This document shows positions 16,639 through 49,053 of a stretch of 64,000 bases of DNA, one piece after another. The stretch lies in the NCBI RefSeq assembly GCF_039388985.1, contig NZ_CP135021.1, positions 564,871-628,870 of the forward strand, in the 5' to 3' direction. Positions within the stretch are counted from its first letter, which is position 1. Each line of letters begins with the position of its first letter. Both the position numbers and the translations under genes were made by a program. Origin of the DNA: Buchnera aphidicola (Aphis aurantii) (GTDB lineage Bacteria > Pseudomonadota > Gammaproteobacteria > Enterobacterales > Enterobacteriaceae). The notes below the pieces were generated by a model that worked only from the letters and a program-made list of their open reading frames with translations, did not search any database and was not told the origin of the DNA.

Positions 16639-17282
16639 ATGGAATGGAAAAAAGAATTTATTGAATTTCTTTTAAAAAAAAAGTCTTAAATTTTGGAAAA
16701 TTTATACTAAAATCCGGACGTACAAGCCCATATTTTTTTAATTCAGGTTTATTATCTACAGGAAAAGATACTGCTAAAATTGGATCATTTTACGCACGTG
16801 CAATAATGGATTTAAATATTAAGTTTGATGTATTATTCGGACCTGCTTATAAAGGTATACCTATCGTAGTTTCTACTTCAATAGCACTTAAAAATCAATA
16901 TAATTTAAATATTCCATATTCTTTTAATAGAAAAGAAGAAAAAAAATATGGAGAAAAAGGGCAATTAATAGGGGGAGATATTAAAAATAAAAAAATTATT
17001 ATTTTAGACGATGTCATAACATCAGGCATGTCAATAAATCATTCAATTAAAATTATTGAAAAATCAAATTCTAAAATATCTTCAATTTTCGTTTTGCTAG
17101 ATCGAAAGGAGAAAAGAGAAAGTAACTTGCATAAAATTAATTATTCAACAAAACAAAAAAGTCATCAAATTAATTCTATCATTACAATTGATGATTTAAT
17201 TAAATATCTTTCTAAAGAAAAAAAACTAAAAAAATATGCTTCTAAATTAATAGAATATCATATAGAACATGGTACTTTTTAA
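16639..17282 (+). CDS. pyrE: orotate phosphoribosyltransferase, interrupted by an A-tract frameshift
   Basis: PyrE joins orotate and PRPP to OMP in pyrimidine synthesis. The true start is the ATG at 16639, preceded by TAGGA and giving MEWKKEFIEFLLKK. In the A9 run at 16674-16682 the frame is one base short; reading one extra A restores KKKVLNFGKFILKSGR and then the rest of the protein to 17282, with the PRPP loop IIILDDVITSGMS. With the correction the length is about 214 residues, as in E. coli (213). Without it only a frame from ATG 16806 remains, lacking about 56 N-terminal residues that include the active-site LKSGRTSPYFF. Conservation on both sides argues for a functional gene rescued by slippage, or for a homopolymer sequencing error. 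Confidence 0.9.
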
Positions 17283-17293
17283 AATTTTTTATT

Positions 17294-17761
17294 TTATACT
17301 CCAGAATGACCAAATCCACTTGTATGGCGATCAGTTTTTTTAAATTCTTGAACTACACTAAACACAGGTCGAATAATTGGAACAAAAACTATTTGGGCAA
17401 CTCTATCGTTAGGATAAATATAAAATTCTTTTTTGCTTCTATTCCAAAGTGAAATCATTAATTCTCCTTGATAATCTGAATCAATTAATCCTACTAAATT
17501 ACCTAAAACAATACCATTCTTATGACCTAATCCAGATCGAGGTAGAATTAAAGCAGTAATATAAGGGTTTTCAATATATATCGAAATTCCAGTTGGAACT
17601 AAAATCACTTCTGTAGCGTGTAAAAGTATTTTTTTGCTTATCGATGCCTTCAGATCCAATGCAGACGATCCGGAAGTAGCATATTCAGGTAAAAAATTGC
17701 TATTTTTTTTATTATTAGTATTATCGTTTAGAAATTTAATTTGAATTTTACTCATGTTCAT
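17294..17761 (-). CDS. dut: dUTP diphosphatase (dUTPase)
   Basis: Dut hydrolyses dUTP to dUMP, keeping uracil out of DNA and feeding thymidylate synthesis. The 155 residues (about 151 in E. coli) show the five trimeric dUTPase motifs: SSALDLKA, PRSGLGHKNGI, GLIDSDYQGE, DRVAQIVF and the C-terminal P-loop-like RHTSGFGHSG. Two ATGs two codons apart are possible starts. It converges on pyrE with an 11-base gap; E. coli has dut near pyrE too (dut-slmA-pyrE), but slmA is absent here. Confidence 0.97.
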   Translation of the reverse strand: MNMSKIQIKFLNDNTNNKKNSNFLPEYATSGSSALDLKASISKKILLHATEVILVPTGISIYIENPYITALILPRSGLGHKNGIVLGNLVGLIDSDYQGELMISLWNRSKKEFYIYPNDRVAQIVFVPIIRPVFSVVQEFKKTDRHTSGFGHSGV

Positions 17762-17789
17762 AATTATTTAATTAAAGTATATTTTAATG

Positions 17790-18545
17790 TCATGATAAAA
17801 CTAAAAAATCTGGATTCATTAAAGATTTTTCAGAAATTAAAAAATAATTTAAATCTTTTTCTTCATTATTACTATATGTTATTACCCTACCCCCCGCAGC
17901 TTTTACAATTGCATCTCCTGCCGCCGTATCCCAAATATATGTTGCTCCAAATCGTGGATAAATTTGAGCTTTTCCTTCTGCTATATAACCAAACTTTAGA
18001 GATGAACCCAATTTTTCTATTGTATATTGTTTTGTTTTTCTTAATAAATCATATATTTTTTTATTTGGATGTGATCGACTTATAAGAAATTTTGGTATAT
18101 TTGATGAAACAACAGAAATTTTTTTTTTATATCCTTTAGAATCTACTTTCCAAGCTTTATTTTTATACGCGCAATATAAAATATTAAAAAAAGGAGCATA
18201 TATAACACCTAAAATAGGTATTCCATCTTTAATTAAACTAATATTAACTGTAAATTCTCCATTTTTTTTTAAAAACTCTTTAGTTCCATCTAGTGGATCA
18301 ATTAACCAATAGAGATTCCAATTTTTATTATATTTAATATAATGTATATCTTCCTCAGATAATATAGACACATTAGGTAAAATAGTAAATAATCCATTTT
18401 TAATAATTTCATTAGAAATTTTATCTGCATTAGTCACTGGACTTTTATCTATTTTATATGAAATATTTATTAATTTACTAGAATAATAACATTTCATAAT
18501 AGCATCTCCGGCATCTTTCGCTAACTTACAAATTTTTTTGAGCAT
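17790..18545 (-). CDS. cysQ: 3'(2'),5'-bisphosphate nucleotidase
   Basis: CysQ is a Li+-sensitive, Mg2+-dependent phosphatase that recycles 3'-phosphoadenosine 5'-phosphate formed in sulfate assimilation. The 251 residues (246 in E. coli) contain the inositol-monophosphatase-fold metal motifs: SEED near residue 63, WLIDPLDGTKEF near 80-91 and IWDTAAGDAIVKAAGG near 204-219. It lies between dut and rplI, all leftward. Its retention points to a working sulfate assimilation route in this symbiont, although no other cys gene is in the window. Confidence 0.95.
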   Translation of the reverse strand: MLKKICKLAKDAGDAIMKCYYSSKLINISYKIDKSPVTNADKISNEIIKNGLFTILPNVSILSEEDIHYIKYNKNWNLYWLIDPLDGTKEFLKKNGEFTVNISLIKDGIPILGVIYAPFFNILYCAYKNKAWKVDSKGYKKKISVVSSNIPKFLISRSHPNKKIYDLLRKTKQYTIEKLGSSLKFGYIAEGKAQIYPRFGATYIWDTAAGDAIVKAAGGRVITYSNNEEKDLNYFLISEKSLMNPDFLVLS

Positions 18546-47259: not shown

Positions 47260-47352
47260 AATATTTTAAAATAATTTAAAGTCGATTGTCGCTAATTACA
47301 TATTTTATTATGATTTCATAATCATTTTTATATAAAATATTTTATACTAAAT

Positions 47353-48297
47353 ATGAATAGTAATATGAACAAAAAAATATTAAGAATTGCTACTAGAAAA
47401 AGTCCTTTAGCTTTAGAACAAACTAAATATGTTACAAAAAAAATATTATCTTTATATCCAGAATTAATTATACAATTAGTACCTATAGTTACACATGGTG
47501 ATAATATTTTAAATAAATCACTTTCAAAAATTGGAGGAAAAGGACTTTTTATAAAAGAATTAGAGTTTGCTTTACTTGAAAATAGAGCAGATATTGCTAT
47601 ACACTCCATGAAAGATCTTCCAATTCATATTACTAAAGGATTGTGTTTAATCAGTATATGTAAAAGAGGAAACCCATTAGATTCATTAGTTTCTAATAAC
47701 TATCAATCGATTAATCAATTACCTAAAGGAGCAACAGTTGGAACGTCTAGCTTAAGAAGACAATGCCAATTAATTACGTATAGACCAGATTTAGTAGTTT
47801 CTCCTTTAAGAGGAAATATAGAAACAAGAATAGCTAAATTAGATCAAGGTCAATATGATGCGATAATTTTAGCAACCGAAGGATTAAATAGATTAGGTTT
47901 GAAACATCGTATTACTCAAATTATACCAGCTGAATTGTCATTGCCTTCATGTGGACAAGGGGCTATTGGGATTCAATCTAGATTGAATGATAAAAAAATG
48001 CTGTTTCTTTTATCACGTTTAAATCATATCAATACTTTTACTGAAATAAATATAGAACGTGCATTTTGTAAAAATTTAGAAGCAGGCTGCCAAATTCCCA
48101 TTGGAAGTTATGCAATTCTAAAGAAAAATAAAATTTGGCTTAGAGGATTAGTTGGTTCACCTGACGGGGCTATTATATTAAAAGGAGAAAGAATTGGGTG
48201 GTGTGATACTTCAGAAGCCATGGCAAGTTCTTTGGCTAATGAATTACTTAAAAACGGTGCTCGTAAAATTCTTGATGATATTTATACTACCAATTAA
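47353..48297 (+). CDS. hemC: porphobilinogen deaminase (hydroxymethylbilane synthase)
   Basis: HemC polymerises four porphobilinogens to hydroxymethylbilane. The 314 residues (313 in E. coli) show RIATRKSPLALEQTKYV, HGDNILNKSLSKIGGKGLF, the catalytic Asp in IAIHSMKDLP, GTSSLRRQCQL and the dipyrromethane-binding Cys in EAGCQIPIGSYA. The start MNSNMNKKILRIATR has two close ATGs. hemD follows after seven bases, so the two are one operon. No other heme gene is in the window; the product most likely goes to siroheme. Confidence 0.97.
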   Translation: MNSNMNKKILRIATRKSPLALEQTKYVTKKILSLYPELIIQLVPIVTHGDNILNKSLSKIGGKGLFIKELEFALLENRADIAIHSMKDLPIHITKGLCLISICKRGNPLDSLVSNNYQSINQLPKGATVGTSSLRRQCQLITYRPDLVVSPLRGNIETRIAKLDQGQYDAIILATEGLNRLGLKHRITQIIPAELSLPSCGQGAIGIQSRLNDKKMLFLLSRLNHINTFTEINIERAFCKNLEAGCQIPIGSYAILKKNKIWLRGLVGSPDGAIILKGERIGWCDTSEAMASSLANELLKNGARKILDDIYTTN

Positions 48298-48304
48298 ATT
48301 TAAA

Positions 48305-49053
48305 ATGAAAATATTAGTGATGAGACCTTCTCCTGAAGGGGAAAAATTAGTAAATATATTAAATAATATGGGAATTTTATCTTGGCATTTTTCTTTGTTT
48401 AACTTTTTACCGAGTTTAAGTTCAATCAGCTTATCAAAAAAAATTTATGAATTATATACGTCAGATATAATTCTTTTTTTTTCTAAAAAATCTGTTTATT
48501 ATACAAACTTATATTTAAATCAAAATAATCTTCATTGGCCTATTGAGCCTGATTACTACACTATTGGACAAGGCACTGCTATTTTTCTCAATAAATATAT
48601 TAAAAAAAAATTTTATTTCCAAAAATTTCAGAAAATAGTGAAGCTTTATTAGAACTTCTTTATAAAAAAAATCTACGATCATCTAAAATAATTTTAATGA
48701 AAGGAGAAAATGGAAGACAATTAGTAGAAAAAGAGTTAACACAAAAAAATTTTGATGTATCCATTATAGAATGTTATAAAAAAGTTTTTAAAACAATTAA
48801 CAACCACATTGAAGTAAAAAAATGGCGTTCTTATCAAATTAATACATTAATAGTAACTAGTGGTGAAATTTTAAATAGATTAAATGAAAAAATAAATTTT
48901 TTAAATAAACATGAATGGCTATTTAAATGTAAAATATTTGTTGCAGGAAGTAGATTAAGTGAAATAGCTAAAAAAATAGGATGGAAAGACATCGTAATAT
49001 CTAATTATGCTGATAACAACAATTTATTAAATATTATTAAAAAACATAATTAA
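48305..49053 (+). CDS. hemD: uroporphyrinogen-III synthase, interrupted by an A-tract frameshift
   Basis: HemD closes hydroxymethylbilane to uroporphyrinogen III. The ATG at 48305 gives MKILVMRPSPEGEKLVNIL; the first half includes DYYTIGQGTAIFLNKYI. At the A9 tract 48602-48610 the frame is one base short and stops at 48652. One extra A gives KKKILFPKISENSEALLELL and then IILMKGENGRQLVEKEL, LIVTSGEILNRL and the end at 49053, about 249 residues (246 in E. coli). The alignment with E. coli is continuous across the tract. The gene is therefore complete apart from one base, and is either rescued by slippage or affected by a homopolymer error. Confidence 0.88.

What the first reader, a model, noticed from the sequence alone, without database searches (positions are those of the whole stretch)
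16639..49053. Five genes broken only by one-base shifts in A-tracts: probable slippage-rescued expression
pyrE (A9, 16674-16682), orn (A11, 33597-33607), amiB (A11, 34012-34022), the unrecognised gene (A9 in the message, 41777-41785) and hemD (A9, 48602-48610) each carry a single frameshift in an A-tract. On both sides of each tract the frame is open, and in four cases clearly homologous to the intact E. coli protein. Four need one extra A and one (amiB) needs one fewer. Random decay would leave further stops and frameshifts. RNA polymerase slippage on A-tracts that restores frames has been reported for insect endosymbionts. Tracts of A10 in the intact yggS and mutY show that such runs are common and would generate the reverse loss in those genes.
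Basis: partly seen in the sequence, partly recalled or inferred. Interest (0 to 1): 0.8.

Follow-up and report, generated by a model that had tools for sequence, protein, structure and literature searches.

The report
Ancient frameshifted genes still under selection
In the bacterial partner of aphids, some genes have been split by a one-base reading-frame break at a run of nine A's since before many aphid lineages separated, yet they have not decayed, so the cell probably reads across the break; one of them has a domain shaped like proteins that other bacteria inject into host cells.

Summary
All five tracts lie at the stated coordinates with open frames on both sides. The window is Buchnera of an Aphis-type aphid. 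Three of the five are not recent accidents. pyrE carries the same kind of break in 14 of 36 Buchnera genomes: 13 of 14 in the window's clade, plus G012; the lost base is in the T-run before the A9. hemD is broken at A-runs in 28 of 33 genomes, 24 at one site, with purifying selection downstream; this contradicts a published reading of hemD as rare and recently lost. The unrecognised gene is in two frames at an A9 in 32 of 34 genomes, but is one open frame in 14 of 14 homologues found outside the genus. Its C-terminal domain matches type III effectors EspG and VirA in fold. orn and amiB are labile, and assembly error is not excluded there. Rescue by RNA-polymerase slippage is the likeliest mechanism; -1 ribosomal frameshifting is the main rival. 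No RNA or protein data could be examined.

The parts
16639..17282 (+). pyrE, two frames: upstream frame 16639-16689, downstream frame to 17282
   Evidence: Sequence; downstream ORF hits Pribosyltran PF00156; one shift, no stop against G013 pyrE
16666..16673 (+). T-run (TTTCTTTT) that is one base shorter than in in-frame relatives: the actual place of the pyrE base loss
   Evidence: 36-genome comparison
16674..16682 (+). A9 of pyrE, in-phase slippery heptamer A AAA AAG, likely slippage site
   Evidence: Sequence
33144..33688 (+). orn, upstream frame 33144-33620, last ~25 codons in another frame
   Evidence: RNase_T PF00929; one shift, no stop
33597..33607 (+). A11 of orn
   Evidence: Sequence
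33893..34773 (+). amiB, signal-peptide/linker frame and amidase frame
   Evidence: Amidase_3 PF01520 on the downstream ORF; frames
34012..34022 (+). A11 of amiB, only long run where its two frames overlap
   Evidence: Sequence
41696..42109 (-). orphan gene, upstream frame (137 aa, MSSNV...)
   Evidence: ORF; homologous upstream ORFs with open frames in relatives
40584..41771 (-). orphan gene, downstream frame (395 aa; C-terminal domain residues ~241-395 has an EspG/VirA-like fold)
   Evidence: Homologues; models and fold matches
41777..41785 (-). A9 (message sense) in the overlap of the two frames of the orphan gene
   Evidence: Sequence; the same A9 and phase in 29 other-or-own two-frame genomes and in G016
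48305..49053 (+). hemD, upstream frame 48305-48652, downstream frame to 49053
   Evidence: HEM4 PF02602 on both pieces; one shift, no stop
48602..48610 (+). A9 of hemD
   Evidence: Sequence; site shared by 24 of 33 genomes

Best explanation
pyrE, hemD and the orphan gene are functional genes whose reading frame is broken in the DNA and restored in part of the gene products by slippage on a run of nine (sometimes ten) A's, most likely by RNA polymerase during transcription. The breaks are old: pyrE's was fixed before the window's clade of 14 genomes split, hemD's is spread over both main clades with several returns to frame, and the orphan gene's predates the split of the Aphidinae genomes examined. 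Selection keeps the protein downstream of the break. orn and amiB are younger, lineage-specific length changes of A11 runs that may or may not be rescued. Shown here: the breaks, their distribution, the lack of further damage in most copies, the constraint. Inferred: that slippage happens, at which level, and that full-length protein is made.
For: pyrE: one shift at the same place and nothing else in 14 of 36 genomes, 13 of 14 of one clade. hemD: 28 of 33 broken, 26 of these with exactly one shift and no stop, 24 at one site with A9 (20) or A10 (4) runs. Downstream dN/dS: pyrE 0.05-0.24 in the five pairs where both are broken, against 0.13-0.18 in the five pairs where both are in frame; hemD 0.17-0.49 in the 11 pairs where both are broken. 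Control of real decay in the same block: epmA in G006 and G033, hemC/hemD in G021. Control genes hslV, hslU, fpr and g44713 are clean in 35 of 35. Runs of 8 or more A or T between genes keep their length between sister genomes in 14 of 61 cases, inside ORFs in 315 of 571. The orphan gene is a single open frame in 14 of 14 homologues outside the genus, 11 of them beginning MS and 8 MSS like the upstream frame here. Slippage at A-runs with 12-50% corrected transcripts is described for Buchnera cell-wall genes (passage of PMC5009743), and Buchnera transcription insertions fall almost only in A/T runs, 151 of 157 (PMC5574713). No Shine-Dalgarno-like core was found before 13 pyrE and 26 hemD runs and no unusual RNA fold after four runs, so dnaX-type ribosomal stimulators were not seen.
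Against: No transcript or protein was examined. PMC5574713 states that it detected no transcription error that restored a frame in Buchnera. [quoted passage not shown] PMC6260861 passages report weak poly(A) slippage for E. coli polymerase. hemD is less constrained than hemC (0.05-0.15), is absent in G019 and decayed in G021, and has two shifts in G001 (plus a stop) and G008. Two hemD copies (G017, G035) and three orphan-gene copies (G011, G032, G035) have the other offset. The upstream frame of the orphan gene has dN/dS 0.44-1.62, near neutral, though it stays open for 99 codons or more.
Confidence: 0.75

Rival explanations
1. The breaks are crossed by -1 ribosomal frameshifting on the in-phase slippery heptamers A AAA AAG (pyrE) and A AAA AAA (hemD), giving the same products without any change in the mRNA.
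For: The heptamers are in phase in the sequence, and both outcomes are the same protein for pyrE and hemD. PMC1088944 passages note that dnaX reaches the same end by slippage in Thermus and by ribosomal frameshifting in E. coli.
Against: No Shine-Dalgarno-like core before the runs (0 of 13 pyrE, 0 of 26 hemD) and no unusual downstream fold in the window. The opposite offset in G017 and G035 hemD, and in amiB, cannot be crossed by a -1 shift.
Confidence: 0.3
2. All five are pseudogenes caught early; the shared breaks only mean inherited loss of function.
For: Homopolymer frameshifts are the commonest gene-breaking change in Buchnera (PMC3164680); orn and amiB breaks are labile.
Against: Constraint downstream of the pyrE break equals that of in-frame pyrE; 26 of 28 broken hemD have no second lesion; real decay in the same block leaves many shifts and stops.
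Confidence: 0.07
3. The breaks are sequencing or assembly errors in A-runs.
For: orn and amiB sit in the only A11 runs of the listed window genes and no other broken orn copy has that run length.
Against: pyrE, hemD and orphan-gene breaks recur in 14, 28 and 32 separately deposited genomes. Cannot be excluded for orn and amiB.
Confidence: 0.04
4. The orphan locus is two separate genes, the second translated from its own start or by reinitiation, so no frame change is needed.
For: The two ORFs are annotated apart where named sources exist (P0021, P0019); the upstream frame is nearly unconstrained; the conserved C-terminal domain lies after the first ATG/GTG/TTG of the downstream frame in many genomes.
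Against: 14 of 14 homologues outside the genus are single open frames, 11 starting MS; the first ATG/GTG/TTG of the downstream frame comes only at residue 35-203 although the homology begins earlier, at residue 1-43.
Confidence: 0.15

Closest known systems
Slippage-rescued poly(A) frameshifts in Buchnera and Blochmannia (Tamas 2008, not held; described in passages of PMC5009743 and PMC3017870)
   Same: AT-rich insect symbiont, single indel at an A-run, otherwise intact gene
   Different: The breaks here are shared over a clade or most of the genus sample, mostly at A9, and in pyrE the indel is next to the run and not in it
Ancient frameshifts maintained in Blochmannia (Wernegreen 2010, not held; title seen in the reference list of PMC3017870)
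   Same: Old frameshift kept across species without decay
   Different: Other genus and genes; here 36 genomes, out-of-genus in-frame homologues and a decay control
Thermus dnaX and Shigella mxiE transcriptional slippage (passages of PMC1088944)
   Same: A9 or T9 run, two frames joined by slippage
   Different: No transcript evidence here
EspG / VirA type III effectors (PDB matches)
   Same: Predicted fold of the C-terminal domain of the orphan protein
   Different: 10-13% identity over the aligned part, no Pfam or PDB sequence match, mutualist host, split gene

Membership tests
Slippage-rescued homopolymer frameshift genes of insect symbionts | Frame broken at a single A/T homopolymer, open frames on both sides | tested here: met
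   pyrE, orn, hemD of the window: one shift, no stop; for pyrE the indel is in the adjacent T-run; amiB ambiguous
Slippage-rescued homopolymer frameshift genes of insect symbionts | Purifying selection past the break | tested here: met
   pyrE and hemD dN/dS; the 22-codon orn tail and amiB were not tested as broken pairs
Slippage-rescued homopolymer frameshift genes of insect symbionts | mRNAs with variable run length; full-length protein | not testable with these tools
   No RNA-seq or proteome access
Programmed -1 ribosomal frameshifting (dnaX type) | In-phase slippery heptamer | tested here: met
   A AAA AAG in pyrE, A AAA AAA in hemD
Programmed -1 ribosomal frameshifting (dnaX type) | Upstream SD-like and downstream hairpin stimulators | tested here: not met
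   0 of 13 pyrE and 0 of 26 hemD sites with an SD-like core; z-scores -0.25, 0.98, -0.83, -0.48 for four 80-nt stretches of the window
EspG/VirA effector family | EspG/VirA C-terminal fold | tested here: met
EspG/VirA effector family | Sequence similarity | tested here: inconclusive
   No PDB sequence match up to E 1; no EspG family among the 25 of 29 Pfam families shown
EspG/VirA effector family | Type III export and action on host GTPases | not tested
   No assay; FlhA present in 13 of 14 out-of-genus genomes with the gene

The most novel reading that the evidence does not exclude
The orphan gene encodes an EspG/VirA-like protein that Buchnera exports through its flagellar type III apparatus to act on aphid membrane traffic, and in Aphidinae its full-length output is set by a conserved frame break at an exact A9, so that a symbiosis effector is kept low by obligatory slippage.
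Probability: 0.2. Interest if true: 0.92.

Novelty: new variant of a known kind. Interest (0 to 1): 0.74.

Why it matters
It suggests that old annotations of gene loss in Buchnera may be wrong: hemD, described as very rare and recently lost (PMC3890641 section 7), is present in 33 of 35 genomes examined, 28 with an A-run break. That bears on the open question of uroporphyrinogen III import (passage of PMC3246468). It also gives a first candidate for a substrate of the Buchnera flagellar export apparatus; the abstract of PMC8109811 says no secreted proteins have been recognised and its role is unknown. Exact A9 runs shared by tens of genomes allow a direct RNA and proteome test of whether slippage is programmed or merely tolerated.

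Tried and rejected
G029 reads N over the whole orn-hemD block and was left out, so A. pisum itself was not examined for orn, amiB, hemD and the orphan gene; 216 bases of G003 read N.

That the orphan pair are the published orphans yba3 and yba4 (highly expressed, PMC1899503) is my guess: no source tied names to this locus. NCBIfam gave nothing above cut-off for the four proteins given.

Considered and rejected: a simple A-tract indel in pyrE; a sequencing error for the three shared breaks. rpmE showed shifts in 11 of 35, but I read these as an artefact: my reference starts at an upstream TTG. G016 has the orphan gene as one 508-aa ORF, but a nearly equal-length genome (P0002, contig 628100) is annotated as not joined, so this may be an error or a strain difference. 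A link of the orphan gene with FlhA is weak: 13 of 14 with the gene outside the genus have FlhA, 2 of 16 small genomes without it do, but those 16 may not be Buchnera. G024 has FlhA and no orphan gene. The literature search for hemD frameshift in Buchnera found only an unrelated paper. That hemD, pyrE and orphan-gene breaks are unreported is known only in an open-licence library.
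Full report
The observation. The window lies in a 639,369-base genome whose leucine-plasmid contig is closest to plasmids of Buchnera from Aphis species, 81-83% identity in the best five records. Of 49 message-sense A-runs of nine or more in the 57 genes I listed, five sit at frame breaks, including both A11 runs.

Comparative design. 35 further genomes of the genus were found. 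I took the orn-to-hemD block and the pyrE region of each. The block of G029 is withheld (all N), so 35 genomes, the window's included, were used there and 36 for pyrE. A frameshift-aware protein-to-DNA alignment was run on 17 genes by 35 genomes, on pyrE, and recounted. Control genes hslV, hslU, fpr and g44713 are clean in 35 of 35. Real decay looks different: epmA has 9 shifts and 6 stops in G006 and 14 and 8 in G033; hemC of G021 has 6 and 4.

pyrE. Fourteen of 36 genomes have one shift near residue 10 and no other damage; 22 are in frame. On a tree of nine concatenated proteins (quick search, some branches weak) 13 of the 14 are the window's clade, whose 14th member, G013, is in frame; G012 is separate. 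Three changes suffice. The run is A9 in broken and in most in-frame genes; the missing base is in the T-run before it. Downstream dN/dS is 0.05-0.24 in five broken pairs, 0.13-0.18 in five in-frame pairs.

hemD. 33 of 35 genomes have a recognisable gene. Five are in frame (G004, G020, G023, G026, G028), 28 are broken at A-runs, 26 of these by exactly one shift without a stop. Twenty-four share the site near residue 99, 22 with the window's offset and two (G017, G035) with the other; the runs there are A9 in 20 and A10 in four. Seven changes at this site are needed on the tree, so the state has been lost or gained repeatedly. Downstream dN/dS is 0.17-0.49 in the 11 pairs where both are broken, above hemC (0.05-0.15) and near rsmJ (0.11-0.34). 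Of the 14 out-of-genus stretches examined, hemD is in frame in G144, has one shift at another A9 in G126, and was not found in 12. A published comparison calls HemD very rare among Buchnera, with recent loss in A. pisum strains, and intact in the M. persicae strains (PMC3890641, section 7 read); G026, of that strain's length, is indeed in frame. The present data speak against loss in most of the genomes examined, not in A. pisum, which I could not see.

The unrecognised gene. An upstream frame (MSSN...) and a 395-residue downstream frame overlap. In 34 genomes with the gene, 32 have two frames; in 29 the overlap holds exactly A9 in the same phase, G016 has the same A9 but reads as one 508-aa ORF, G011, G032 and G035 have an A9 with the other offset, and in G017 no clear start was found. 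The first ATG, GTG or TTG of the downstream frame comes at residue 35-203. An upstream frame of 105 codons would stay open by chance about 5 in 100,000 times at this composition, yet its dN/dS is 0.44-1.62, so it is a fast-evolving part; downstream it is 0.17-0.69. Outside the genus, 14 genomes of 198 sampled have a match (16 with the window's own and G012), all small, and in all 14 the matching frame is one open frame of 306-493 residues; 11 begin MS and 8 MSS. I infer that one ancestral gene was split. G001 and G002, which by length are the S. graminum and A. kondoi symbionts, both have the split; PMC3164680 gives up to 70 million years for such divergences (passage). In three protein searches of a 5.8-billion-sequence set every hit that carried a source name was Buchnera; others had no name.

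orn and amiB. orn is broken in 8 of 35 genomes, six near the end of the gene with runs of A10-A16 and two (G007, G025) near residue 52; the window's A11 is not repeated among them, and seven changes are needed. amiB is clean in 6 of 33 alignable genomes; 23 show shifts, mostly in the poorly conserved linker, where the alignment is unsure. Neither is good evidence of rescue.

Mechanism. RNA-polymerase slippage on A-runs is documented in Buchnera (PMC5009743 passage) and insertions there fall in A/T runs (PMC5574713), but that study saw no restored frame. The same products from pyrE and hemD would come from -1 ribosomal slippage, for which the heptamers are present but stimulators were not found, and which cannot serve the opposite offsets. 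Run lengths are kept: between-gene A/T runs of 8 or more keep length between sister genomes in 14 of 61 cases, against the widely shared A9 of pyrE, hemD and the orphan gene. I commit to slippage in transcription, about 60 to 30 over the ribosome.

Standing. The kind is known (Buchnera and Blochmannia slippage; the two main papers are not held, and are known here from passages and recall). New, as far as searches show, are the clade-wide pyrE break, the genus-wide hemD state, and the split effector-like gene.

Noticed in passing
window 40584-41060 (-): C-terminal domain of the orphan protein has an EspG/VirA-like predicted fold; a possible flagellar-export substrate of Buchnera.
   Followed up: partly
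L142 (G021), hemC-hemD region: hemC and hemD are truly decayed in G021 (hemC 6 shifts and 4 stops), and G019 lacks both.
   Followed up: no
L129 and L131 (G008, G010), rsmJ: Both carry one shift at an A10 near residue 72 of rsmJ, a further shared A-run break.
   Followed up: no
window 26722-28140: 1.4 kb without a recognisable long ORF; could be a decayed gene or spacer.
   Followed up: no
window 2992-4027: 1 kb without a recognisable long ORF.
   Followed up: no
L137 (G016), orphan gene: The only genome of 34 with the gene as one 508-aa ORF although the A9 is unchanged; strain difference or error.
   Followed up: partly
L122 (G001), epmA: epmA of the S. graminum-length genome has one shift at an A11 and no stop, another rescue candidate.
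   Followed up: no
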